A stretch of DNA of 64,000 nt. Source: Victivallales bacterium (GTDB lineage: Bacteria; Verrucomicrobiota; Lentisphaeria; Oligosphaerales; Oligosphaeraceae). The position numbers were made by a program, and so were the translations under genes. Location: positions 90,051 through 154,050 of the forward strand of contig JAFZWH010000091.1 of assembly GCA_017617415.1 (NCBI GenBank), in the 5' to 3' direction. Under the pieces are notes generated by a model, which saw only the letters and a program-made list of their open reading frames with translations, was not told the origin of the DNA and did not search any database. Position 1 is the first letter of the stretch. Each line of letters starts with the position of its first letter. This document shows, piece by piece, positions 14,759-61,613 of the stretch.

Positions 14759-17134
14759 TCATTCTTCCGTCAACTCGTCATCCGCATCGAGCAAGTCGAA
14801 TTGCCGTGCATGGCTGAAGTCGATCTCCTCGATGTACACGCAACCTAGGGATTCGAGACGCACGAAGATGAAGAGAGTCTCCGCTTTCTCGTCCTGGAAG
14901 AGCCTTCCGGTGTGGAGTTCCCACATTTTAGAGAACTGCTCCGTGGCCGGGAAGGGATGGCAGACGACTTTTCCGTCCTGGACGGATGGCTTGAGGTCCT
15001 GCGCGTCAGTGGCGTAGATGTCCCCGCTGAAATGAACCAAGTATCGTGCCTTGATCTCCAGGGACGAGGTCAGCTTCTGCGCGAAGAGATCGAGGATGGA
15101 TGCGGGATCCAGCATGGTGACCGCAGCCCCGATGCGCTCGTCGTGGACATTGACCACCGGCGCGCTACAGCACATCAAAAGGCGGTTCTTGACTATGGGG
15201 TCAACCATCGGTCCGGTCCACACCGGGCGATCGGCGAAGTCCTCGATGGCACGCACATACCACTTCTGCTGGGTTACTCGGAAATTAGAATCGCGGTGGC
15301 CCTCAAAAGGATAGGCAAAGAGAAGGTCGTTGCTGAAGCCCAACATTGTGGAGACGACAGGGGTGCGCTCCTCCGAAAGGTCGATGCCCGCCAGCTCCGT
15401 CTGCCCCTCCTTCCGAATGCGGAAATGCTCCGTGGTCATCTTCACGAATGACGGCAGCATCGGGTAGAGCGTGGAGAGGATGGAGTCCAGGGCGGGAATC
15501 TCCCCCGCGTCAATGGGCACATGCCAACCGAAGGCCCGAAAAGAGGCTTGCTTTCCCAGGCTAGGCTGGTAGCCATAGCCCGGAGGTTCCTCGGCAACCC
15601 CTTCGGTGCCACGATAATAGTGATAAGACGAATTGGGCCGTTCCAAGTGCCCCAGGCGGGCGGAGGCCTCGCGGCATAGCTCCAGCAAGTCGTCCTCGAG
15701 CTGCACAATCTCGTGTTCGACCTGGATGCCGGTGCGCATGTTCGAGGAGTAGATGCGCTTCAACACCGTGTGCTGCTCCTCGCTGACGATCTTCTTCGCC
15801 ACCTGCTGGCGTAGATTGAAGATGATGCCTCCGCAGCACACCGCTGTGACCAACAGGAAAAGCACCAGCAGCGCGGCGCTATAGCGCGCCAGCATTCGGG
15901 TGAAGCGCGACCAGCGCGGGAAGAGTTCGACGCTGGTGGCCTCGTTCTTGAGATAGCCGCGCAGGTCGGCGGCCAAGTCGGCGACCTCCTGATAGCGGTC
16001 CAGCGGATCCAGCGCCGTGGCCTTGCGGATGATGCGCTTCAGAACGGAGGGCACATGGCAGCCAAAGTAATGCGCCATCGGCGAGAGTTCACCTGCCTTC
16101 ACGCACTCCAACACAATCGTCTTGTCCCGCCAGGGGAAAGCACGGCGCAGGAAGACAGTCTCGTAGAGCAGAAGCCCCAGCTGGTAGATGTCCGCCGTCT
16201 TGCCGTATGGGCGGTGCTGGAGCACCTCCGGCGCGATGTAACGAGGGGTTCCGGCGGCGGAGGTGATAATCCAGTCCTGCCCTTTAGGGATCACGCGCGC
16301 CATGCCCCAGTCCATCACATAAAGTTCGCCAAAGCGGCCGACCATGATGTTCTCGGGCTTGAGGTCGCAGTGGAGGACATTGCGGTTGTGCGCGTACTCG
16401 ATGGCCTCGCATACCCGCAGGAAATGCTCGATGCGCAACTTGCGCTGCCAGCGCTCGACGGTACAAATCTGGTACCAGCTCAAAGGCGAATACTTCTTCT
16501 TGATCTTGGCGATGCGCTCCCGAAAACTCTTGCCCTCCACATACTTCATCACCAGATGCGGGACATTCTCGTGGTCCACATAGAGATTGTGGATCGGAAC
16601 GATCGCCGGATGCTCCAGATGCGCAGTGATGCGGGCCTCGTTGAAGAAAGCCCCGCGCGCCTTGGGATTTTCGGAGTTCTTCAGACTCTTGATGGCCACC
16701 CGCCGCCCAAACTGGAGATCCTCCGCGGCCACGATGGTGCCTTGCCCGCCCTTGCCCACGTCCTTCAACAGCGGGTAGTTCTTCTCCAAGTCGCCGATAG
16801 TGGATTCATCGTGGAACGAACTGGCGTCGGCACAATGCTCGTCCTCGCTGACCTCAAGGCTGATGCTCGAATCGTCGATGTCATACTGGTGGTCGTATTT
16901 GCGAACTCCGAAGAGTTCCAGAAGATCCGAGAAGAAGGCCACCGCGGCAGAACGCTGGTGCATCACCGGAATCTCCTCGAACAGATAGTCCCGGCGGCCG
17001 AGATTGGCGCACCGCAGGAAATTCAGCTGGCTCTCGTTGAAACTGCCGGTGCCATTGCTGTTGACATTGTTCTCGACCACACCCGTCTTGACTTCGAGGT
17101 CATCGGATAGTTCGTTGGGCTTCTGGACAATCAC
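14759..17134 (-). CDS. Membrane Ser/Thr protein kinase with C-terminal Cache-like sensor (copy 1, HCD variant)
   Basis: A 791-residue Hanks-type kinase. Order: acidic N-terminal region (1-115), kinase domain (about 123-395), one membrane helix (417-438) and an extracytoplasmic domain whose QQKWYVRA, DRPVWTGP and later GAAVTMLD blocks look like a dCache fold. Kinase motifs are GKGGQGTIV, Lys149, NEARITAH, HCDLKPEN (255-262), DWG (275-277) and GTPRYIAPE. Cys256 replaces the usual HRD arginine, making this a non-RD kinase; DWG for DFG is common in PVC kinases. The start is GTG at 17134, supported by alignment with the paralog upstream. The ligand and the target are unknown. Confidence 0.9.
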   Translation of the reverse strand: MIVQKPNELSDDLEVKTGVVENNVNSNGTGSFNESQLNFLRCANLGRRDYLFEEIPVMHQRSAAVAFFSDLLELFGVRKYDHQYDIDDSSISLEVSEDEHCADASSFHDESTIGDLEKNYPLLKDVGKGGQGTIVAAEDLQFGRRVAIKSLKNSENPKARGAFFNEARITAHLEHPAIVPIHNLYVDHENVPHLVMKYVEGKSFRERIAKIKKKYSPLSWYQICTVERWQRKLRIEHFLRVCEAIEYAHNRNVLHCDLKPENIMVGRFGELYVMDWGMARVIPKGQDWIITSAAGTPRYIAPEVLQHRPYGKTADIYQLGLLLYETVFLRRAFPWRDKTIVLECVKAGELSPMAHYFGCHVPSVLKRIIRKATALDPLDRYQEVADLAADLRGYLKNEATSVELFPRWSRFTRMLARYSAALLVLFLLVTAVCCGGIIFNLRQQVAKKIVSEEQHTVLKRIYSSNMRTGIQVEHEIVQLEDDLLELCREASARLGHLERPNSSYHYYRGTEGVAEEPPGYGYQPSLGKQASFRAFGWHVPIDAGEIPALDSILSTLYPMLPSFVKMTTEHFRIRKEGQTELAGIDLSEERTPVVSTMLGFSNDLLFAYPFEGHRDSNFRVTQQKWYVRAIEDFADRPVWTGPMVDPIVKNRLLMCCSAPVVNVHDERIGAAVTMLDPASILDLFAQKLTSSLEIKARYLVHFSGDIYATDAQDLKPSVQDGKVVCHPFPATEQFSKMWELHTGRLFQDEKAETLFIFVRLESLGCVYIEEIDFSHARQFDLLDADDELTEE

Positions 17135-17180
17135 AGGTGTTTTCCAAATCGATAAGAGTTCTCTTGAGGTCAGTCGGTCT

Positions 17181-19580
17181 TCACGGCGCCGTGCCGACGG
17201 CTGGCACGGCCTCTGCCGGAGTCGACTCAGTGGTCCAATCCATCTCCATCGCGCGGTCGAAGTCGATCTCCTCGATGTAGATGCAGTTCATGTCCTCGAC
17301 CAGGTTGAAGATGAAGAGCGTGTCCCGCTTCTGGTCGTCCAGGAAGACGCGGCCGGTCTTAAGGTTCCACATCTCCCGGAACTTCTCCGGGTATGGAAAG
17401 TCGAACAGCCCGATCTCGCCCTGGCAAACCGGCTGGCACCGCGCCACGTCGGTCGAATAGACCTTCCCGCTGGCATGGACCAGATAGTGCCCCTTGATGT
17501 AGGGACCATGCGTCAGCCGTTCCGCAAACTTGCCGATGAAGTCCCTTGGATCCAGCACTGCCACTGCCACACCCTCGGTGAAGCCCGGCGGCGCCTCGTC
17601 CACCTGGAATGGCATCGCGCAGGCAATGATGATGCGGTTGCGCACGCGCACAGACTGGAAGAGGTCCGTCCAGATCGGACGGTCCACTGCCTCGCGCTCC
17701 GCGCGCTGGTACCAGACCGAGGTGGTCACATCGTAGTCCTGAGGCATGTTGCCCTCGTAGGGATAGGCGAGCATCAGCTTGTTCTCGAAGGCCACGCGCG
17801 AGTTCAGCACAGGGGTGCGCTCCACCCCAAGGTCACGGATCGGACTCTTCGTGCGCCCCGTCTTGTCCACCAGAAAATGGTTCGTCAGCACCCGCTTGAA
17901 GGTCGGCATCATCGGATAGAGCGTGGTCAGCACCGCGTCCAGATTCTCCACCTGGACATTCGTCGGCAGGTGCCAGAAGAAGGCCCGGAACGAGACCTTG
18001 TTGTCGAAGGTGGACGCCCAGCCGTAGCCGGGTGGGGGGAACTCGATCATGCCCGCCGTGCCGCGGTAGTAGTTCAGGTCGGGATTCGGAGGCTGAAGCG
18101 TCGCGAGACGCACCCGCGTCTCGCGCGCCAGCGACAGCACATCGTCGGCCACTTCCTTGATCTCCTGGGCAAGCATCACGCTGGTATGGAGGTTGGAGGA
18201 GTAGAGGCGACGAAGCGCCTCCTCCTCGCGCTGCTCATGCAGCTTCTCGTTCACCTTGCTTCGGACATTGTAGAGAACCACCGCGAAGAGAATGGTCGTG
18301 ACCAGAATCACCAGCCCCAGAAGCAGATGGCTATAGCGGGACATCACCCGCATGAAGTTCGACAGCCGCGGATGGCGCTCGACGCTAGTGGCCTCGTTCT
18401 TGAGATACCCGCGCAGATCCCGCGCCAGATCCGACACCTGCTGGTAGCGGTCGCGCGGCGAGAAGGCCGTGGCGCGGGAGATGATCTTGCACAGCGTCGC
18501 GGGCACATGGCATCCGTAGTAGTGCTGCATGGGGGCCATCTCGCCCGCCTTCACCCGCTCCAGCACCTCGTCCTTGCTCTTCCAGGGAAAGGCGCGGCGC
18601 AGGAAGACGGTCTCGTAGAGGATGAGACCCAACTGGTAGATGTCCGCCGTCTTGCCGTAAGGCTTGTGCATCAGCACCTCGGGGGAGATGTAGCGCGGGG
18701 TTCCGCAGATGGGCGAAACCACCCAGTCCTGCCCCTTGGGCATCACCATCGCCATTCCCCAGTCCATCACATAGACTTCTCCGAAGCGCCCGACCATGAT
18801 GTTCTCCGGCTTCAGGTCACGGTGGAGGATGTTGCGGTTGTGCGCGTACTCGATGGCCTCGCAGACCCGCAGGAAACGCTCGATGCGAAGCTTGCGCTGA
18901 TAGCGCTCCACCGCGCAGACCTTGTACCATGGAAGGCTGGCGTACTTCTGCTTGAGATTCTGGAGACGCTCCCGGAAACTCTTGCCCTCCACCAATTTCA
19001 TCGCCAGATGCGGAGCGTTGTCGTGGTCCACATAGAGGGTGTGGATGGGGACGACGCCGGGGTGCTCCAAGTGGGCGGTGATGCGCGCCTCCGTGAAAAA
19101 GAGATGCCGCGCCTCCTGGTTCTCCGGCTTGCGGAGGCTCTTGACCGCGACACGACGCCCGAACTGCAGGTCCTGGGCGGTCGAGATGGTCCCCTGCCCG
19201 CCGTGAGCGACCTCTTTGCCGAGCGGATAGTTGGTCTCCAGGTCGCAGGTGTTGCCCTCCTCGTGGAACGAACTGGCGTCGGTGTTCTGCTCTTCCTCGC
19301 TGGACTCCAGGCTTCCGGAGGTGTCGTCGATGTTATATTCGGAGTCGAATTTGTGGACACCGAACATCTCGCGGATCTCCGCCCAGAAGCTCGCGAAGGC
19401 ACTGTGCTGATGCATCCGCGGAATCTCATCCGCCAGATACTCCTTGTAGGCGGCGATGTGCTGTGCGGCAGCCTGGTCCTTGGCCCCCATCACCCTCGTC
19501 CCCGTCACCTCCGCCTCGGGATGCGAGTCGCTCCCGCTGAGCCGGTCGTCGGAGAATTCTTTGTCGGAGTGAATAATCAA
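17181..19580 (-). CDS. Membrane Ser/Thr protein kinase with C-terminal Cache-like sensor (copy 2)
   Basis: A paralog of the next gene downstream, with the same layout: acidic N-terminal region, kinase domain, single membrane helix and an extracytoplasmic Cache-like sensor with TSVWYQRAEREAVDRPIWTD. Here the catalytic loop is the standard HRDLKPEN, with DWG and GTPRYISPE. The conserved N-terminal IPRMHQHSA-F--FGV-K-D segment and NIDD acidic patch are shared with copy 1. I start it at the TTG at 19580 (LIIHSDKEFSDD) because it aligns with the GTG start of copy 1; an earlier in-frame TTG at 19616 adds 12 residues with no counterpart. A gap of 46 bp separates the two kinases, suggesting tandem duplication and co-expression. 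Confidence 0.9.
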   Translation of the reverse strand: MIIHSDKEFSDDRLSGSDSHPEAEVTGTRVMGAKDQAAAQHIAAYKEYLADEIPRMHQHSAFASFWAEIREMFGVHKFDSEYNIDDTSGSLESSEEEQNTDASSFHEEGNTCDLETNYPLGKEVAHGGQGTISTAQDLQFGRRVAVKSLRKPENQEARHLFFTEARITAHLEHPGVVPIHTLYVDHDNAPHLAMKLVEGKSFRERLQNLKQKYASLPWYKVCAVERYQRKLRIERFLRVCEAIEYAHNRNILHRDLKPENIMVGRFGEVYVMDWGMAMVMPKGQDWVVSPICGTPRYISPEVLMHKPYGKTADIYQLGLILYETVFLRRAFPWKSKDEVLERVKAGEMAPMQHYYGCHVPATLCKIISRATAFSPRDRYQQVSDLARDLRGYLKNEATSVERHPRLSNFMRVMSRYSHLLLGLVILVTTILFAVVLYNVRSKVNEKLHEQREEEALRRLYSSNLHTSVMLAQEIKEVADDVLSLARETRVRLATLQPPNPDLNYYRGTAGMIEFPPPGYGWASTFDNKVSFRAFFWHLPTNVQVENLDAVLTTLYPMMPTFKRVLTNHFLVDKTGRTKSPIRDLGVERTPVLNSRVAFENKLMLAYPYEGNMPQDYDVTTSVWYQRAEREAVDRPIWTDLFQSVRVRNRIIIACAMPFQVDEAPPGFTEGVAVAVLDPRDFIGKFAERLTHGPYIKGHYLVHASGKVYSTDVARCQPVCQGEIGLFDFPYPEKFREMWNLKTGRVFLDDQKRDTLFIFNLVEDMNCIYIEEIDFDRAMEMDWTTESTPAEAVPAVGTAP

Positions 19581-19680
19581 CGGAAAAACGGTTGGTATAA
19601 AATGAAGCCGTAGCAAAAAGCGAAATCAATAAGTACAATAATGCGTCAAAGCGATTTTTCCCAAGACGCCCTGAAAAAAC

Positions 19681-39629: not shown

Positions 39630-41714
39630 ATGGCAAAGAACGAAAGATTCCTCACCGTAGATATCGGCGCCACCAGTATCAAGCTGGGCGAATTCGAAAT
39701 TGACGCTGTGGGACAGTTGTGCATGACGGTCTTCGCCTACCGAGAGTACGAAGAGGAACTCTCGGAGGAGACGCGAATGGGCGTCGTCGAAGGCGTGTTG
39801 CGGCAGATGCTCATGGAAAGTGGCGTGAAAGCACGCCGAACGCTCGTGTCACTCTCCGGACAATCCGCATTGCTGCGATTCGGGCGGATTGCCAACATGA
39901 AGAATGACAAGAAGCAAATTCGGCAGCTGGCGGAATTTGAGGCCAAGCGGAATTTGCCTTTCGCCCTGGAAGATATCTGCCTGGACTATCAGCTTATCGC
40001 ATCAAACGCGCAATCCGAGGATGACACCACCCTGGATGTCATGTCGGTGGTGCTCAAGCGCGACTTGGTTGAGCAATTCACGCAAGCCATTCGAAATGTC
40101 GGTCTGCGCCCCCTGTTGATTGACCTGGCTCCCGTGGCATGCTACAACAGCGCACGTGCCAACGGCATCGGCGAGAATGGCAGCTCTCTGGTGGTCTCCA
40201 TCGGCGGTCGCTCCACCAATCTGCTGTTCATTGACGGCGATCGTTTCTATGCTCGCTCCATCCCGATTGCGGGTTACTCCATCACCCAGCAGATCGCCAA
40301 GGAATTCGGCATCGGTTTGCCGGAGGCGGAAGAGCTCAAGCGCCACCATGGTTTCGTGGATCTGGGCAAGGATACCAACGTGTCAGGCACTTCCGAGGCG
40401 GCCGCGCACATCGCCAAGATCATCCGCAACGTGATGAGCCGTCTGCATGGTGAAATCTCCCGCTCCATCAACATCTATCGATCCACCCAGGGCGGTTCCA
40501 CGCCGACTGCCATCTATTTGACCGGCGGCTCCTCCATCCTCACTTATTGCGATGTCTTTTTCAGCCAGAAATTTGACCTCAAGGCGGAATACTTCAACCC
40601 CTTGACCGTGATTAGTCTGGCTCCTTCTATCAACCGCGAGCAACTCAGTTCCGTGGCTCACATGTTCAGTGAGGTCATCGGTTTGGCCGTGCGTTATGTG
40701 CGCCCCTGCCCCGTAGAAATCAACTTGTTGCCACGCAAGGTTATGCGCCAGCAGCGCCTGACCTCCAAGAAACCTTATTTCGTAGCCGCGATGCTCTGCC
40801 TGGTCGCGATGATGTTCGTTGTCCTGCAAGGGGCCAAGGAGGCGGCCGCCGAATCCAAAATCCGTGCCGACAAATACACCGAGGTGCGGAACAAGCTGGA
40901 ACCACAGTACAAGACCATCACCGGCGCAATCAGCGATGCGGAAAGCGCCGTAAACGCGGTCACCACCCTGAACAATTTCATGCTGGAGCGCACCAAATGG
41001 CCGCTGATCATTGAGGAGATCTTCCGGGCCAAGCCCGCCAATGTGTGGATTGACAACATCACTCCCATCATGGGCAATATCGCCCAGGTCGTGGAGGCCA
41101 CTGTCGTCGTCGACACTTCAGGTGCCGGAAACGGCATGGGAGGCGACATGATGATGGATATGGGAGGAATGTCGGCCAGCATGGAGATGGACATGGGAGG
41201 AATGGGAGGAATGGGTTCCGGCGCACAGGCGCTTAGCCAAATGGCAATTGCCGGATTTGACATCAGCGCCCATACCTTGGCTCCTAAGGGCATCGGCATG
41301 GGCGTGGATCCTGTCCTGCCCCCCGAACCCGACTATCCTTTCGAAGTCCCCGAAGGCGAATCCAGTTCGGAAAGCAGTGAGATTGGCGCAGAGGGCGAAG
41401 AAGGCAACGGCACCGAGGACGGAGCGCCGCAAGGACCAAAGCTCTTCGACCAGTCCGGCGAGAGCCTCTTTGTGCGTAACCTCCAGAAGTCAAGACTCTT
41501 TAGTTCGGACAGCGCATTTACCGCCATGAAGACGCGCCGCAAGAGCGAATTCTTCGACAATGGCTCGGATTTTGACATTCAAGTGAAGCTCGAAATCCCG
41601 ATAGAAGCATTCCCATGGAACTTCGGAAGCTCCGCCACGAGCGGTCGAGGAGCTGGAATGGGCATGGGCGAAAGCACAGGACGACCCAGCCGCCGCCGCC
41701 GTGGACGCAACTGA
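39630..41714 (+). CDS. PilM/PilN fusion of a PVC type IV pilus-like locus (Amuc_1101-like)
   Basis: A protein of 694 residues in two parts. Residues 1-360 are an actin-like PilM ATPase (LTVDIGATSIKLGEFE, SLVVSIGGRSTNLLFIDG, IYLTGGSSILTY). After an EINLLPRK motif typical of PilN comes a membrane helix (about 390-410) and a periplasmic PilN-like part. The C-terminal region holds a Met/Gly-rich tract of about 30 residues (GGDMMMDMGGMSASMEMDMG and on) and an acidic tail. I start it at the ATG at 39630, where PilM homology begins. It is the first of four co-oriented genes matching the order of Akkermansia Amuc_1101-1100-1099-1098 (recalled, not searched). Confidence 0.85.
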   Translation: MAKNERFLTVDIGATSIKLGEFEIDAVGQLCMTVFAYREYEEELSEETRMGVVEGVLRQMLMESGVKARRTLVSLSGQSALLRFGRIANMKNDKKQIRQLAEFEAKRNLPFALEDICLDYQLIASNAQSEDDTTLDVMSVVLKRDLVEQFTQAIRNVGLRPLLIDLAPVACYNSARANGIGENGSSLVVSIGGRSTNLLFIDGDRFYARSIPIAGYSITQQIAKEFGIGLPEAEELKRHHGFVDLGKDTNVSGTSEAAAHIAKIIRNVMSRLHGEISRSINIYRSTQGGSTPTAIYLTGGSSILTYCDVFFSQKFDLKAEYFNPLTVISLAPSINREQLSSVAHMFSEVIGLAVRYVRPCPVEINLLPRKVMRQQRLTSKKPYFVAAMLCLVAMMFVVLQGAKEAAAESKIRADKYTEVRNKLEPQYKTITGAISDAESAVNAVTTLNNFMLERTKWPLIIEEIFRAKPANVWIDNITPIMGNIAQVVEATVVVDTSGAGNGMGGDMMMDMGGMSASMEMDMGGMGGMGSGAQALSQMAIAGFDISAHTLAPKGIGMGVDPVLPPEPDYPFEVPEGESSSESSEIGAEGEEGNGTEDGAPQGPKLFDQSGESLFVRNLQKSRLFSSDSAFTAMKTRRKSEFFDNGSDFDIQVKLEIPIEAFPWNFGSSATSGRGAGMGMGESTGRPSRRRRGRN

Positions 41715-41775
41715 ACATCTTTCCGCCTAACATAAGCGATTTCGTCGCAAAGAGAACATCCAAGACAGACGCAAT

Positions 41776-42858
41776 ATGGAATTCTTGAAGAAAAACTGGG
41801 GTCTGCTGCTGTGCGTAGTGGTCTTCATTGCTCTGATGGCCTATCAGATGATGCAAATCATGAAGTTCCAGAAAGAATACGCCGACAACGAACATACGGT
41901 GGAAGAAGCCGACAAGTGGTTCAAGTCAATGAATTCTTCAGGTTGGAAAGTCACCCCCAACGAGAACAACGTCTTGGAAAACGCGGAAATCGCCATGGCC
42001 AACAAGGAAATCGCAGTTGGGCATAGCGAAGAGATTCAGCGTCAGCTGGTCAAGCGCTACTCGTTCACTCCCACTCTGCCGAACAACTATGTCCAGGCAC
42101 AGGAGGAACTCGACCGGCGACTCAGCATCATCACTGACTACCTGTTGGTCCAGAACAAAATACAATGGAACTGCGGAACCCCGATTGGCGGACGCTTTTA
42201 CTCCCTTGCCCAACAGGCAGAACCGATTCCCCAGAGCGACTTCCCGAACATCTTCCGCCAGCTGATGATCTATGAGAAACTGCTCCACCACATCGTCGGC
42301 GCGGGCGTCAAATCCATCTACGCCCTTGAGTTTCCGCGCTGGCTCGTGATCAGCGAAGAGTCCGACTACACGGTCACGCCCATCATCATCAGCGTGGAGG
42401 CCGATGCGCCCACAATCCAAAATCTGGTCAATAATCTCTCTTACGACCCCACGATGCTCATTTTCATCCGCAACATGGATTTCACGGTGCCCGCCAGCAC
42501 CAGTCCTGCTGCGGAATACTTTGACATTGTCCTTCAGCGCCGTTCGGAACTTGACCAAGTGCTGGCTGCCAAGCTTAGCGCCGCCCAAGGCAACAATGAC
42601 CGCATGGGCGGCATGGGAATGGGAATGGGCGGCGGCATGGGAATGGGAATGGGCGGCATGGACATGGGAATGGGGCGCAACCGCGCCATGGGCGGCGGCA
42701 TGATGGACTCCATGTCCAGCACTTCGCAAAACATCGACGCGGCATTCCTGGTCCCCGAGGATCCCAAGCGGCAAGACTATTTGATCTTCCGTACTCCACG
42801 GCTGATTCAACTCAACTTGACTCTTGATCTCTTGGAATACAAGGCTCCTGAGTCCTGA
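41776..42858 (+). CDS. PilO-like / Amuc_1100-like pilus locus protein
   Basis: A single-pass inner-membrane protein of 360 residues. After an N-terminal helix (about 7-28) and a coiled region it has a periplasmic PilO-like domain: IIISVEADAPTIQNLVNNLSYD, then LIFIRNMDF, matching the ferredoxin-like fold of PilO and of Amuc_1100. Near the C-terminus (about 277-315) is a Met/Gly tract of more than 30 residues. The final strand, LIQLNLTLDLLEY, matches the end of the Amuc_1100 fold. It starts 61 bp after the PilM/PilN gene. Homology to Amuc_1100 is from memory of layout. Confidence 0.75.
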   Translation: MEFLKKNWGLLLCVVVFIALMAYQMMQIMKFQKEYADNEHTVEEADKWFKSMNSSGWKVTPNENNVLENAEIAMANKEIAVGHSEEIQRQLVKRYSFTPTLPNNYVQAQEELDRRLSIITDYLLVQNKIQWNCGTPIGGRFYSLAQQAEPIPQSDFPNIFRQLMIYEKLLHHIVGAGVKSIYALEFPRWLVISEESDYTVTPIIISVEADAPTIQNLVNNLSYDPTMLIFIRNMDFTVPASTSPAAEYFDIVLQRRSELDQVLAAKLSAAQGNNDRMGGMGMGMGGGMGMGMGGMDMGMGRNRAMGGGMMDSMSSTSQNIDAAFLVPEDPKRQDYLIFRTPRLIQLNLTLDLLEYKAPES

Positions 42859-42922
42859 GTCTACTTGCCGGTCGGCAATTTCGCATTACATTAATCACCT
42901 TTAACTACTTCGAGGTCATAGT

Positions 42923-44392
<1,470 letters not shown>

Positions 44393-44522
44393 TTGCTCTC
44401 AAGGCGCTCAGACTAGGCGCCGTTACCCCTTTCAATTCTTTAATTAAGTAAATCATAACCAAACCAACAACAATGACCAGCACGACGGCATAACAACCGT
44501 CGGGCAGTCAAGCGAAGGTCCC

Positions 44523-47500
44523 ATGGCTAAGACGAAAAAACACATCGAAGCAATGAATTCCCTGTGCAGTGCGCTTGGCGCATTGCTTTTCCTAGTCTCA
44601 TTGCCAGCCTTCCTGCCGGCCCAGGAGGTGCCCCAGGATGTCACTGAAGCAGAACGTCTCCTGATGGAGCAGGAGCAAGCCGAAGAGGCGGAACAGGCGT
44701 TGTCCGAAGGCGTTGGCTCCTATTCCAAGTGGCTTGCGCAACAATCCACCGAATCCTTGCTGCGTCGTGGCGCCGACCGCGTGGCCACCGCGACAAACAC
44801 CCTCAAAAAAGCCAATGACCTGCTGGACAACCGTAACAGCGCCGAGGTCCAGACCTTGGTCGCCAAGGAAGGCATCATCGAGAAGACCCTGCTGGATGCC
44901 CTTAATGTCTATGGCGTTCTCAGAAACCGTGAAGGCATCAGTGCCGCTCAGGAAAAAGAGATCATTGCCAAGGGAATGGAACTTGAAGAGCTGAACAAGA
45001 GCCTTGTCCTTACCCGTGGCAAATACAGCCTGCTGATTGAGCAGCTCCAGAAAGAGACCGAGGTCCAGGTCAGTGACGAGAAAATCCAGAAGGCCAAAGA
45101 GTTGCTGGATGCCGCCGCACGTGGCTACTCGTCCGCAGCGACGGTCTATAGCAATGCCGAACTCGACCAGGCGGAAGACCAGGCCCGCGAGGCCCAGAAG
45201 GTCTTGCTTGAGGCAGGCCGCATCCTGACCGGCCAGGGTATCATCCACAGCAAACGCGTCGATGACGACCTGAACAAATTGGAGTCCTTGCGCCTCAAAC
45301 TCCAATCCAAACTTGCTGACATCTATTCTCTGCGTGGCCAGAAAGAGACGGACCGTGGCGAAGATCTCATCACTTGCGCCATCCTGGAACTCAACTATGC
45401 CCGCCGGACGCTGATTGACGGCTTGTCCGCACAGGATGAAATCGCCATTGACAACCTTGGTTACCAAGAGGCCTACGCAATTGAGGCCGAGCTGGCCGAA
45501 ATCGGCAAGCAGGCACCAGACCTCAAGGACATCATGACGCCCGCCGTTGAAGACAAGCTCGAAAAGGACATCAAATTGCTCATGGAAATCCGCAAGGACA
45601 CCGTGGTGCGTGCCAAGACCACCATCGACACCCTGATGCCCGACTCCCTCGACCGTGACGAGAAAATCCGCATCGGCCTCAAGAGCGGCCAGACCTATCT
45701 GCAGAATGGTCGTTATCAGCAGGCACGCGAGCAGTTTGAACAGGTTCTCGTCGAGGATCCTTTCAACTTGACCGCCATTCGTTCTCTGGGCAAAATCAGC
45801 GAAGCCATGGGAGCGGCCGCCGATGCAAAGCTTGAGGAAATCCTCAAAACCCGTATGGCCGAAGTCCGGTGGAAGTGGTCTGACCCTGTCACTCCGCTGA
45901 TTGCCGGTTCTGCCGACAATTCGAGCACCCAGACCATCCGCAAAAATGACGAGACCCAGGGCATCAACAAGCGGTTGGATGAAATCGTCATTCAAAACCT
46001 CACCATTGACAACGAGCCGCTGATTGACGTCCTTCGCGAAATCCTTCCCCGTGAAATTCAGAAGGCGGATCCCGATGGCATCGGCATCAACCTCGTTCCA
46101 ATGCTCACTCCGCCAGCTCATGCTGGCATCACAGGCTATCAGCCGCCAGGATTCAACACCAATAGTGAAGGCGGCGGTGGCGGCATGGGCGGCGGTGCCG
46201 AAGCCGGTGGCTACAACCCGAACATGCAGTATACTGCAGGCTCAGCGGCTGGCATCAATCCGAATTTCGGTCCGACCTACAACGAGGGCTACAATCCCAA
46301 TGCTGTCGGATATCCTGGCGGCGTTGGATACCCCGGAGGCGCAGGTGGTTATGGCTACGATCCAGGAATGGTTGGAGGTTCGCCGTTTGATGCGGCGGCC
46401 AGTGGTCAGACCTCGCTCTCGACTGGCGAGGATCTTGGAGAACAACTGGTCAATCTCCACTTGACCAACATCACCCCGCGAGAGGTCTTGGATTATATCT
46501 CCTGGCAGTTCTCGCTTAAAATCCGCACGGTGGACTCTTCCGTCATCGTGGCACATCCATTGATTGAAATGGATCCGATGGAAACCCGCTTCTACAACAT
46601 CGAGGCAGGTGTCTTCGAAACCAAACGCACCCGTGACAAGATGTCCTCGCTTTCTGGCGTCGGCTCGGGTGACAGCGACAGCGGCAGCGACAGCGATGAC
46701 GATGACGACGACGACAGCGACAGCGGCAGCGGCGGCGGACGTCTCTACGACGGCGGTGGTGCTCGACGCAAGGACGAAAAGTTCTACCGCATTGAGTCCA
46801 TGTTCCGCGCGTGGGGCATCCCAATGCCATACGGCGCCAGCATCAGCTACTACCCGCGCACTGGCAAATTGATTGTCCACCACACGGTTGAACAACAGCG
46901 CGTCATCAAGAACATCCTGGAGGAAATCAACCAGACTCCGAAACAGATTAACATCTCGGCCAAGTTCGTTGAAATTGCTCAGGATGACCTCGACACTCTT
47001 GGTTTCGAGTGGGACTTCATCGGTGGTGGCGTGACCTACCGCGGCGCCTCCCCCGGCACCGACCAGGCTCTTGTCAATGCTCGTGGCGGCACCCGCACCG
47101 GCAACTTCATGTTGGGCATCGGAAGTCAGGCGGCCGGCGGACCAATCGCAATCTCCAACGGGTTGCGCTTTGCCAGCGACATCTTCACCAGCGTCACTGG
47201 CAATGCTGACAAGCTCTTCAATGTCTATACCGTCCTGGGCAACTACGCCTTTAACACGGTGATTCATGCCTTGGAGCAGTCCAAGAACACCGATGTGCTC
47301 TCCGCGCCGATGGTCACTACCATCAGCGGCATGACCGCCCAGTTGAAGGTCACCACCGAGCGTCGTTTCGCCACCGAATGGAGTGAGCCTGACATGGATA
47401 CCACTAACACTGACAGCGGAATTGTTACTTCCTACACGCCTTCCATCCCCTCTGGATGGCAAGAAGTCAGCCTGGGTGTGGTTCTCGATGTCACCCCGAC

Positions 47501-47906
47501 GGTGGCACCGGACGGCTACTCCATCTACGTCGATATGCTTCCCTCCATCACCGAGCTGGTTGGCTATGACACCACCTATAATACGACTGCATTGGTCAGT
47601 GGTAATGAAGTGCCGATGAATTTCACGACGCCGATCTTCACTCGTCGTGAAATTCTCACCCAGCTGGTAGTTTACGATAACGAGACAATCGTGATGGGTG
47701 GTCTGATTCAAGAGAGACTCGAGCGCTTTGAGGACAAGATTCCGCTGCTCGGACATCTCCCCGTGATTGGACACCTCTTCACCAGCCGTGGCGAACAGAG
47801 CACGAAGACCAACTTGATGATGTTCGTGAATGTCCGCCTGGTCAAGCCGGATGGCCAGCCGCTCCGCGCCAACGAAATCCGCGGTCTGCCGGATTTCCGC
47901 CACTAA
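44523..47906 (+). CDS. Giant secretin (PilQ/Amuc_1098-like outer membrane channel)
   Basis: A 1127-residue outer-membrane channel protein. It has an N-terminal signal peptide (about 1-37, ending FLPAQE) and a long helical region with TPR-like repeats (about 45-480; SGQTYLQNGRYQQAREQFEQ). A Gly/Asn/Tyr-rich linker (about 545-625) and N-domains follow, then the secretin domain (about 800-1120) with PKQINISAKFVEI, VLSAPMVTTISG and the closing VPLLGHLP-like IPLLGHLPVIGHLF. An acidic Ser-Asp tract lies at about 715-740. The helical N-terminus is unlike classic PilQ. It ends the four-gene locus. Confidence 0.88.
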   Translation: MAKTKKHIEAMNSLCSALGALLFLVSLPAFLPAQEVPQDVTEAERLLMEQEQAEEAEQALSEGVGSYSKWLAQQSTESLLRRGADRVATATNTLKKANDLLDNRNSAEVQTLVAKEGIIEKTLLDALNVYGVLRNREGISAAQEKEIIAKGMELEELNKSLVLTRGKYSLLIEQLQKETEVQVSDEKIQKAKELLDAAARGYSSAATVYSNAELDQAEDQAREAQKVLLEAGRILTGQGIIHSKRVDDDLNKLESLRLKLQSKLADIYSLRGQKETDRGEDLITCAILELNYARRTLIDGLSAQDEIAIDNLGYQEAYAIEAELAEIGKQAPDLKDIMTPAVEDKLEKDIKLLMEIRKDTVVRAKTTIDTLMPDSLDRDEKIRIGLKSGQTYLQNGRYQQAREQFEQVLVEDPFNLTAIRSLGKISEAMGAAADAKLEEILKTRMAEVRWKWSDPVTPLIAGSADNSSTQTIRKNDETQGINKRLDEIVIQNLTIDNEPLIDVLREILPREIQKADPDGIGINLVPMLTPPAHAGITGYQPPGFNTNSEGGGGGMGGGAEAGGYNPNMQYTAGSAAGINPNFGPTYNEGYNPNAVGYPGGVGYPGGAGGYGYDPGMVGGSPFDAAASGQTSLSTGEDLGEQLVNLHLTNITPREVLDYISWQFSLKIRTVDSSVIVAHPLIEMDPMETRFYNIEAGVFETKRTRDKMSSLSGVGSGDSDSGSDSDDDDDDDSDSGSGGGRLYDGGGARRKDEKFYRIESMFRAWGIPMPYGASISYYPRTGKLIVHHTVEQQRVIKNILEEINQTPKQINISAKFVEIAQDDLDTLGFEWDFIGGGVTYRGASPGTDQALVNARGGTRTGNFMLGIGSQAAGGPIAISNGLRFASDIFTSVTGNADKLFNVYTVLGNYAFNTVIHALEQSKNTDVLSAPMVTTISGMTAQLKVTTERRFATEWSEPDMDTTNTDSGIVTSYTPSIPSGWQEVSLGVVLDVTPTVAPDGYSIYVDMLPSITELVGYDTTYNTTALVSGNEVPMNFTTPIFTRREILTQLVVYDNETIVMGGLIQERLERFEDKIPLLGHLPVIGHLFTSRGEQSTKTNLMMFVNVRLVKPDGQPLRANEIRGLPDFRH

Positions 47907-59252: not shown

Positions 59253-59280
59253 AATTGCTAATTGCTAATTGCTAATTGCT
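59253..59280. repeat. Heptamer tandem array, AATTGCT x4
   Basis: Four perfect units, the same heptamer as at 12085. It overlaps the end of the polymerase gene: the last residues (AISN) and the TAG stop are translated from the array, so the array has set the present C-terminus. Confidence 0.95.
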
Positions 59281-61454
59281 TCCAAGAAGTTGTCTGACAA
59301 GGACTTGAGGCGATCGAGGTAGTAGGCGATATTCTCGTCGCGCACTGTGTTGTCGATTTCCTCGTCAAGCTTGCTGTTGTCGGCGACGGATGGCTTTTTG
59401 CGGGTTCCGGTCACATAGTATTTGAGCGTATCCCCTGGCTGGTAGTCACGGCTTTTGGCACGTGCGGCCAGTTCGTAGACCGCCTGACGGCTCTTGCCCT
59501 TCTTGCGACCGTCCAGGTAGGTCTCTACGGTCTGGTTCAGGCTCGCGCGTTGCAGGAAGTCCGTCAGCGGGAAACGATGTTCGCGGATGGCCGCTTCCAT
59601 TTCAGCGGTGAAGGACGGGACCTCGGCCTCGCGCCCATGCAGGATGCGCTCCACCGCGCCATCCACATAGCGTCGCAGGAACGGCTCCATGCTGCGAGAA
59701 CGAAGTGCCGCGCCACGCAGAATGATGTGCCCTTTCTCTTCCAGCAGAGCATAATTCTTGCTCTTGTAGGAAAACATCACCGCATACACACCATCCAGTT
59801 CGACCTCGATGCCCGGCGGCAATTCCTGTTGGATACGCTGGCGCATCGCGCTCACCGTAGTTCCTTCCGGCGGAACGAAGTAGATGCCATCCGTGTCCAT
59901 CTCGACCACCACTGCGCCCGCCGCCGTAAGGTGGTCGCGCATCCCACCCAGGATTTCACGGCCCGTCGCGGTCACTTCGCGCGCCATCACATAGTCATTG
60001 AAGGTGCCTTGCGCAAAGCCGAGGTAGCCGTAGAAGGAATTGATGAGAATCTTGAAAGATGCCTGAAGCGCAGAATAGTAGTCGCGCTCCTCGGCCGTAG
60101 TCGCGGTCCGCGAGGCGTCTTTTGCCTGAAGTCGAAATTGTCGCAAATTGTCCAGAATTGTCAAAAACACCCCGCGCACATCAGTGGCAGGCGAAAGATG
60201 TTTGGCAAGGATAACGGAGGGATATAGCGAACGCACATCAATATGCCAGACCGGACGGAAGACGCCAGTCTGGCTGGCTTCGGTAAGCGCTCCCTCGAAA
60301 GCGACCGCCGCCTGCGGGCTGGGAAGCGCGGCACCGGCGGCGAGGTATTCGGCGCAGAGCATCCCGTCAATGCGGGTCGCATTGCCTCGTATGACGCAAT
60401 TCTGGTAGGAGAGCGGGAGCAACTGCGTTTGATAGAAATAACTTGCGGAGAGTATCTTGGAGATGCCATCTGTCTCGCGCACATCATCCAGGTTGTAGCG
60501 TTTGAGGCGCTCCAGGTCCGTTTCGTAGAGTTTGGTGATTTCATCGCCGGCGACATATTCGCGGTCAGGCTTGGCGATGCCGAAATACTTCGCGGAGTAC
60601 TTGAGACCGTAACTGTCCATTTCGCGCTTCGTGTTGTCCGCCAGACGCACCAGGTGATAGGTGTCCACCACATGGCGTCCATAGACATCATATCGCGTGT
60701 AATTGATGGTCTTTTCGGCGATGGTGAAGCGCGAGGCGCGACTTTTGGCGACGCGCCCATGACGCCCGAGAGCAAACGGAATCTTGTGACGCTTGCAACG
60801 TATCTCCAGGTACGGCAGGTCGAAATTGAAGAGATTGTGGCCCTCGATGACATCGGGGTCGCGCTCCTGAATCACCTCCAGCGCACGCTGGAGCAGCCCC
60901 GCCTCGCCGCCACATTCGCGCTCGGTCAGGCAGACCTCGAACCCCGCGCTGTCGGTGAGCGCGACCATGAAGATTTCATCTCCTTCGACCTTGGCATCGC
61001 AGAACTTGCCGGGGACGGAATTGCGGCACTCGATGTCCAGTTGCATTCTTCGCAGCTCGCGGAAGGTCATGGAATGGAAGAGCCGCGCCTGCAGGGCAAT
61101 CATCGCCTGCTGCATCAAGTCCGAGAAGACGCGATATGGTGCCAGTGGCGAGCTGGGATTCTGCCCCGTGAGTTTCTTGAGTTGCTTGACCGCCGCCTCG
61201 TAACTCGCCACATCCGGAAACTCCACGCGGGCCTTCATCGCACCCGACCCCTCCAACGCCTGCACGCCACAGTTGTCGGCGAGCTGTGCGCCCAGCTCCG
61301 CACCGGCGGTCAAAAGCCATGGACGGAACTCGACCACTTGACTGGTCACCTGGTCATCCGGCCCCCGGAAAAACAACTCGGCGTGGCTTTCATCGGCGAC
61401 TTCCAGTGCCACCAGGCGCTCGTATGCACTATGAATCAATTCTTTTTCGATCAT
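59265..61454 (-). CDS. Family B DNA polymerase with 3'-5' exonuclease
   Basis: A 729-residue family B polymerase. Exonuclease motifs: LDIECR (Exo I), GHNLFNFDLPYLE (Exo II) and YNLDDVRET (Exo III). Polymerase motifs: DVRSLYPSVI (A), KILINSFYGYLG (B) and MDTDGIYF (C), followed by KSKNYAL. Active-site acids are intact, so it should be a proofreading polymerase; a repair or bypass role is likely. It is close in size to archaeal PolB and bacterial Pol II. I start it at MIEKEL (61454) because GGAGG lies 5 nt before. The C-terminus is encoded by a heptamer array. Confidence 0.93.
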   Translation of the reverse strand: MIEKELIHSAYERLVALEVADESHAELFFRGPDDQVTSQVVEFRPWLLTAGAELGAQLADNCGVQALEGSGAMKARVEFPDVASYEAAVKQLKKLTGQNPSSPLAPYRVFSDLMQQAMIALQARLFHSMTFRELRRMQLDIECRNSVPGKFCDAKVEGDEIFMVALTDSAGFEVCLTERECGGEAGLLQRALEVIQERDPDVIEGHNLFNFDLPYLEIRCKRHKIPFALGRHGRVAKSRASRFTIAEKTINYTRYDVYGRHVVDTYHLVRLADNTKREMDSYGLKYSAKYFGIAKPDREYVAGDEITKLYETDLERLKRYNLDDVRETDGISKILSASYFYQTQLLPLSYQNCVIRGNATRIDGMLCAEYLAAGAALPSPQAAVAFEGALTEASQTGVFRPVWHIDVRSLYPSVILAKHLSPATDVRGVFLTILDNLRQFRLQAKDASRTATTAEERDYYSALQASFKILINSFYGYLGFAQGTFNDYVMAREVTATGREILGGMRDHLTAAGAVVVEMDTDGIYFVPPEGTTVSAMRQRIQQELPPGIEVELDGVYAVMFSYKSKNYALLEEKGHIILRGAALRSRSMEPFLRRYVDGAVERILHGREAEVPSFTAEMEAAIREHRFPLTDFLQRASLNQTVETYLDGRKKGKSRQAVYELAARAKSRDYQPGDTLKYYVTGTRKKPSVADNSKLDEEIDNTVRDENIAYYLDRLKSLSDNFLEAISN

Positions 61455-61613
61455 CTTTCCCTCCATTCACGTGGCAGAAATGCCTCGGAGGACAAACTCC
61501 CACGGGAAAGTGCATTATTTTATGTTGTCAGCCAATTGCAGTCTTAAACAGTATTTGTTATCCGTCTTAACTTAACACTGTTTCTGCAATTGACGCTGTA
61601 TTCGCAATAAGAA

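What the first reader, a model, noticed from the sequence alone, without database searches (positions are those of the whole stretch)
39630..47906. Four-gene type IV pilus-like locus in which every protein carries Met/Gly-rich or glycine-rich tracts
The order PilM/PilN, Amuc_1100-like, Amuc_1099-like, secretin matches a locus known from Akkermansia muciniphila. What stands out is that the first three proteins contain long, nearly pure Met/Gly runs and the secretin a Gly-rich linker plus an acidic Ser-Asp run. Independent gain in neighbouring genes suggests a shared purpose, for example copper/silver binding by methionines, a flexible gel-like phase in the periplasm, or mutual recognition. I know of no description of such tracts in this locus.
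Basis: partly seen in the sequence, partly recalled or inferred. Interest (0 to 1): 0.7.

Follow-up and report, generated by a model that had tools for sequence, protein, structure and literature searches.

The report
Methionine-glycine brushes in a pilus machine
In one little-studied bacterium all four proteins of a type IV pilus-like machine carry long stretches built mainly of glycine with methionine (with tyrosine in one of the four); across its relatives such stretches come and go together, and they likely act as soft, sticky connectors between the machine's predicted inner- and outer-membrane halves.

The parts
39630..41714 (+). PilM-PilN fusion (694 aa): actin-like PilM domain, long helix expected to hold the membrane span, predicted PilN-type domain
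41100..41237 (+). Met/Gly(Asp) tract of the PilN part, residues about 491-536, in the loop between two beta strands (472-481 and 538-550)
   Evidence: pLDDT under 50 over 491-535; sequence
41619..41711 (+). predicted-disordered Met/Gly and Arg-rich C-terminal tail of PilM-PilN, residues 664-694
   Evidence: pLDDT under 50; coordinates
41776..42858 (+). Amuc_1100-related protein (360 aa), likely PilO
   Evidence: profile hit to Amuc_1100 6lad E 5e-9, 39 bits; operon position
42592..42732 (+). Met/Gly tract of the Amuc_1100-like protein, residues 273-319, before the C-terminal conserved strand, where Amuc_1100 has an Ala/Pro-rich linker
42923..44392 (+). PilP-like, Amuc_1099-related protein (489 aa): N-terminal helix, zinc-ribbon-like cysteines, TSP3/EF-hand-like Asp motifs, HR-like domain, second beta domain
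43535..43753 (+). PilP/GspC homology-region (HR)-like domain, residues 205-277
43901..44020 (+). Met/Gly tract of the PilP-like protein, residues 327-366, between HR-like domain and second beta domain
   Evidence: pLDDT under 50 over 334-365
44342..44389 (+). Met/Gly C-terminal tail of the PilP-like protein, residues 474-489
   Evidence: pLDDT under 50 over 477-488; TRF unit GGCATGGGC x3.7
44523..47906 (+). Secretin (PilQ, Amuc_1098-related, 1127 aa)
   Evidence: PF00263 115.5 bits; Amuc_1098_fam 277 bits below cut-off 750; PilQ/GspD chains
46128..46433 (+). Gly/Tyr/Pro/Asn-rich linker of the secretin, residues 536-637, directly before the STN (N0-type) stretch; Met/Gly-rich at the same place in many relatives
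   Evidence: alignment; STN matches begin right after the linker in L017 and L048, E 2.5e-5 and 8.6e-4, below the curated cut-off
46662..46739 (+). Ser/Asp acidic run of the secretin, residues 714-739

Best explanation
The locus encodes what is likely a pilM-N-O-P-Q set, the predicted bridge between the inner and outer membranes of a type IV pilus-like machine, in which each protein carries glycine tracts studded with methionine (or Phe/Tyr), predicted to be disordered, that likely stick weakly to one another and so would hold, align and seal the two halves of the machine. Shown here: the gene relationships, the place of the tracts, their joint gain and loss, and selection on residues but not on length. 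Inferred: the tracts lie close together in the assembled machine, because PilN and PilO form its periplasmic cage and PilP/GspC HR domains bind the secretin N0 domain in known systems (3oss is such a complex). Inferred: many copies around a ring give a dense Gly-spacer, Met/Phe/Tyr-sticker brush that works like the Gly-Met tails inside the GroEL ring, as an elastic coupling and plug.
For: Gene identities. Tracts predicted unstructured in PilMN and the PilP-like protein, and found at fixed places in all four proteins. Co-variation: 19 of 64 loci have 3 or more of 4 proteins with tracts versus 1.4 simulated, 0 of 2000; independent-contrast r 0.24-0.63 between proteins, five of six pairs at p under 0.01, none with the Met or Gly content of the PilM core (all p above 0.08). 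It recurs outside the window's order in 3 of 40 loci: G009 (L071), L116, L121. dN/dS in tracts 0.09-0.38 with 0.5-36.5 indel residues per 100 codons, against 0.1-3.0 outside (9 pairs). Met, Phe and Tyr replace one another between lineages while Gly stays. L+I+V make up only 3.9% of tracts. Same composition as the tail of a protein of G009 that I read by eye as GroEL, GGMGGMGGMGGMGMM. GroEL tail variants with altered hydrophobicity or flexibility failed to replace GroEL in E. coli MGM100, though they did in LG6 (PMC11978752, abstract and section 9 read); bundled tails are proposed to plug the barrel (PMC12571646, abstract and section 8 read).
Against: No contact, cohesion or assembly was shown. 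Several relatives (L017, L019, L020, L046, L048) carry the locus with few or no Met tracts, so Met is not essential to it; 45 of 64 loci have tracts in fewer than three proteins, and none of 20 loci from other classes shows one. Tract dN/dS is higher than outside in 9 of 9 pairs, so constraint is relaxed there, not stronger. The PilP-secretin pair, which should touch most closely, has the weakest co-variation (r 0.24, p 0.057). Without tree correction, tract counts do correlate with PilM-core Gly (Spearman 0.44-0.54). Models are single chains. Tracts were picked by Met/Gly content, which biases dN/dS downward and composition upward.
Confidence: 0.42

Rival explanations
1. Client-binding bristles: the Met/Gly tracts do not bind each other but transiently hold hydrophobic pilin or secreted-protein segments passing through the machine, as GroEL tails hold unfolded clients.
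For: GroEL Gly-Met tails are reported to bind clients. Joint gain could follow a shared client. PilB- and PilC-type families occur elsewhere in the genome: 7 PF00437 places and 4 PF00482 places in two ORFs.
Against: PilN, PilO and PilP surround rather than line the path in known machines (recalled); no client was identified or tested.
Confidence: 0.2
2. Plain flexible linkers whose composition drifts: the loops must be long and unstructured, and Met/Gly is a lineage habit fed by codon slippage, with no Met-specific role.
For: Linkers exist in Amuc_1100 and tract-free relatives with Ala/Pro/Glu; large indel rate and relaxed dN/dS relative to the rest of the proteins; tandem units at DNA level.
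Against: dN/dS well below 1, with synonymous divergence in tracts above that outside in 7 of 9 pairs and a similar Gly codon mix; joint change across four genes; of 35 low-entropy ORFs sampled elsewhere in G000 and G008, only two hold 3 or more Met in the listed stretch.
Confidence: 0.25
3. Metal or redox sink: the Met residues bind Cu(I)/Ag(I) or scavenge oxidants in the periplasm.
For: Met-Met spacings of 1-4 are common in tracts. The only PDB sequence match of the Amuc_1100-like protein alone is a Met/Gly loop of a multicopper oxidase, 6ttd, at chance level (E 0.71).
Against: His 0.1% and Cys 0.0% in tracts; Phe or Tyr in place of Met in some lineages. The neighbouring RND pump fits the multidrug subfamily (625 bits) better than the CusA/CzcA one (325 bits), though below both cut-offs.
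Confidence: 0.08

Closest known systems
Amuc_1098-1101 pilus-like locus of Akkermansia muciniphila (its 1099-1102 part is called MUL2)
   Same: Same genes in the same order (L197); profile match to Amuc_1100 and profile-profile match of the Amuc_1099-like families (probability 100, E 4.5e-39)
   Different: No Met/Gly tracts in the Akkermansia-type locus L197; window proteins fall below all NCBIfam equivalog cut-offs
Type IV pilus alignment complex PilMNOPQ / type II secretion GspC-GspD
   Same: PilM fold, HR-like domain, secretin, gene order (the order in classical systems is recalled)
   Different: PilM and PilN fused, PilP-like protein with zinc-ribbon- and EF-hand/TSP3-like motifs and a second beta domain, Met/Gly tracts in the subunits
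GroEL C-terminal Gly-Met tail
   Same: Composition, flexibility, multiple copies per ring expected
   Different: Tracts here are internal loops and tails of four other, predicted envelope proteins, often longer and of free length
FG nucleoporins (recalled) and Met-rich prion-like domains (search listing only)
   Same: Sticker residues on flexible spacers, length-tolerant
   Different: Bacterial, predicted periplasmic, no cohesion tested

Membership tests
Type IV pilus PilMNOPQ complex | PilM actin-like fold | tested here: met
Type IV pilus PilMNOPQ complex | PilN-type domain after a membrane span | tested here: inconclusive
   PF05137 14.6 bits, below cut-off 22.8; predicted beta-beta-alpha-beta-beta order after a long helix, not searched alone
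Type IV pilus PilMNOPQ complex | PilO-like subunit | tested here: inconclusive
   Amuc_1100 homology met; direct match to PilO not tested. One paper names Amuc_1100 PilO (PMC11573778, passage)
Type IV pilus PilMNOPQ complex | PilP/GspC HR domain | tested here: met
Type IV pilus PilMNOPQ complex | secretin domain | tested here: met
   PF00263 115.5 bits over cut-off 27.5
Type IV pilus PilMNOPQ complex | PilB-type ATPase and PilC-type platform in the genome | tested here: met
   PF00437 at 7 places, PF00482 at 4 places in two ORFs, over cut-offs; which of them serve this machine is not known
Type IV pilus PilMNOPQ complex | a pilus is made | not testable with these tools
   none
NCBIfam Amuc_1098/1099/1100/1101 equivalogs | score over curated cut-off | tested here: not met
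   277 of 750, 30 of 50, no match, 375 of 650 bits
GroEL Gly-Met tail | C terminus of a chaperonin | tested here: not met
   The proteins are PilM/N, Amuc_1100-like, PilP-like and secretin
Neutral microsatellite | dN/dS near 1 and free length | tested here: not met
   Length free, but dN/dS 0.09-0.38 in 9 pairs
Met-rich copper-binding protein | Cu(I)/Ag(I) binding by Met motifs | not testable with these tools
   Composition only: His 0.1%, Cys 0.0%

The most novel reading that the evidence does not exclude
A bacterial pilus machine whose inner- and outer-membrane halves are joined and sealed by a periplasmic Met/Gly condensate: the periplasmic subunits carry sticker-spacer tracts that have co-evolved as one material, a bacterial counterpart of the FG barrier and of the GroEL tail plug.
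Probability: 0.28. Interest if true: 0.85.

Novelty: new variant of a known kind. Interest (0 to 1): 0.62.

Why it matters
It would be a rare case in which several proteins of one machine share a low-complexity composition that is gained and lost together, which makes 'composition, not sequence, is selected' directly testable in a bacterium. [quoted passage not shown] muciniphila (PMC4960237, passages).

Tried and rejected
Neutral slippage rejected as the whole story. A genome-wide Met/Gly habit is not supported by ORF samples, by low-complexity stretches elsewhere or by tree-corrected correlation with PilM-core Met or Gly. Copper link through the neighbouring RND pump not supported. Pattern counts in ten genomes were swamped in G008 and G057 by ATGGGACGT-type DNA repeats (G033 also had many matches, not listed) and the list was cut, so only G000, G009 and G022 are used. 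Arg clusters beside the tracts, as a charge partner of the acidic run, were too irregular to claim. A sequence profile of the Amuc_1099-like family found no trustworthy PDB relative; the fold did.

First co-variation run (38 loci) lost many secretins to a strict motif filter and was redone (64 loci). Rows dropped: 27 loci (19 without a secretin ORF over 700 aa, 5 with short PilM, 3 with unexpected downstream ORFs), plus L001, which is the window's own contig. Kept but imperfect: the secretin of L013 is cut by the contig end (711 aa), and the PilP-like gene of L016 is split in two ORFs, of which only the first was counted. Independent contrasts assume Brownian change, which zero-rich counts break, so the two-state simulation is the better test; both rest on one FastTree topology from PilM residues 1-480. 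The nine dN/dS pairs are not independent (three genomes are used twice) and the window-L013 pair is near saturation.

Literature: no paper held 'methionine-rich' + 'glycine-rich' + 'type IV pil'; two held 'methionine-rich' + 'secretin' + 'periplasm' and by title neither is about this; 'Amuc_1099' gave 7 papers, of which I opened two for passages, and 'Amuc_1100' + 'PilO' one. 'Not in print' rests on these searches of an open-access library only.

Full report

WHERE THE TRACTS SIT. PilN part: residues 491-535, pLDDT under 50, between strands 472-481 and 538-550; further stretches under 50 at 577-606 and 664-694. Amuc_1100-like: residues 273-319, where the profile match skips from Amuc_1100 chain residue 235 to 242 across an Ala/Pro-rich stretch before the C-terminal strand (the second segment scores only 0.2 bits, so that end is tentative). 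PilP-like: 334-365 between two beta domains and 477-488 at the end. Secretin: 536-637, directly before the STN-type stretch; all 21 aligned secretins have a variable low-complexity linker there, and STN matches start right after it in L017 and L048 (below the curated cut-off). That the beta-alpha-beta-like stretch before the linker is the first half of an N0 domain is my reading of the alignment.

CONSERVED IN PLACE, NOT IN SEQUENCE. Across 91 distinct loci, fragments included, the tracts recur at these places with different units: MMGGG, MNPGMG, MMDPG, AMGG, DMFGGGG. Among 64 loci in which all four genes were found (63 of the 91, plus the window), three or more proteins have at least 4 tract Met in 12 of 16 loci of the window's family, 4 of 8 other loci of the order and 3 of 40 loci from the rest of the class (counted from the rows, named loci placed by the tree; total 19, as). 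Of 20 loci from other classes, an Akkermansia-type one included, none shows a Met/Gly tract by the best-window measure, though a few have Gly-rich stretches and several lack downstream genes.

JOINT GAIN AND LOSS. On a tree of PilM residues 1-480, log tract-Met counts correlate by independent contrasts: PilM-PilO 0.56, PilM-PilP 0.36, PilM-secretin 0.52, PilO-PilP 0.53, PilO-secretin 0.63, PilP-secretin 0.24 (p 0.057); none correlates significantly with the Met or Gly content of the PilM core (lowest p 0.081), although uncorrected rank correlations with core Gly are 0.44-0.54. Independent two-state evolution at fitted rates gives 1.43 loci with 3 or more carriers on average against 19 observed, and mean phi 0.00 against 0.70 (0 of 2000 simulations each); loci with either none or at least 3 carriers number 56 against 29 (1 of 2000). 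Five relatives without Met in the secretin tract (L017, L019, L020, L027, L044) carry Phe-Gly there, four of them also in PilN; the window's own secretin linker is Tyr-rich.

SELECTION. In 9 pairs of relatives tract dN/dS is 0.09-0.38 (median 0.18) against 0.04-0.15 outside, and is higher than outside in 9 of 9. dS in tracts is above that outside in 7 of 9 pairs, equal in one (L022/L023) and lower in one (L026/L027). Gly codons in tracts have a similar though not identical mix. Indel residues per 100 codons are 0.5-36.5 in tracts and 0.1-3.0 outside; only L038/L039 shows no difference. Tract composition in 18 loci is M 21.0, G 36.2, P 6.7, A 9.2, K 0.7, H 0.1, C 0.0, L+I+V 3.9 percent; Met and Gly are high by construction, since they define the tracts.

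GENOME BACKGROUND. One of 226 sampled ORFs in this genome (a protein without Pfam match, with a signal-like N terminus by eye and a Met/Gly C-tail, L160) and 0 of 311 in G008 reach the threshold. Pattern matches fall in the locus in 12 of 25 (G000), 6 of 12 (G022) and 4 of 7 (G009) cases; two of the remaining G009 matches lie in the tail of a protein that I read by eye as GroEL.

MECHANISM. Shown: relationships, places, co-variation, selection. From established knowledge (recalled): PilN/PilO form a periplasmic cage and the HR domain binds N0; 3oss is titled a GspC-GspD complex. Inferred: tracts from ring-forming subunits meet and form a weakly cohesive brush that couples and seals the machine, as Gly-Met tails may do in GroEL, where variants altering hydrophobicity or flexibility failed in one E. 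coli strain background (MGM100) but not in another (LG6) (PMC11978752 section 9) and where bundling is proposed to plug the barrel (PMC12571646 section 8). Client-binding bristles and plain flexible linkers remain open; metal binding is least likely. Nothing here tests cohesion.

Noticed in passing
window 46662-46739: The acidic Ser/Asp run of the secretin recurs as an Asp run (6 or more Asp/Glu in 10; 10 of 10 in 15 rows) in all 19 first rows (window family plus L037, L038, L040), whether or not Met tracts are present; a calcium- or Arg-binding role is possible.
   Followed up: partly
L160 1745-2860 (this genome, contig C140): A 372-aa protein with a signal-like N terminus and no Pfam match ends in a Met/Gly/Pro tail, the only other such protein in the sampled 304 kb.
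   Followed up: partly
G008, G057: Many arrays of 9-base ATGGGACGT-like direct repeats, apparently between genes, in relatives of this family.
   Followed up: no
L064, L071, L101-L109, L116 and others: In many other loci of the class two large secretin-sized genes follow in tandem; in L071 and L116 both carry Met/Gly tracts.
   Followed up: no
window 43223-43447: Zinc-ribbon-like cysteines and TSP3/EF-hand-like Asp motifs of the PilP-like gene, invariant or nearly so in 60 aligned sequences; the Akkermansia-type protein of L197 has no such cysteines.
   Followed up: partly
window 14759-19616: Two adjacent Ser/Thr-type protein kinases, about 800 aa each.
   Followed up: no
window 59265-61466: A family B DNA polymerase with exonuclease domain.
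   Followed up: no
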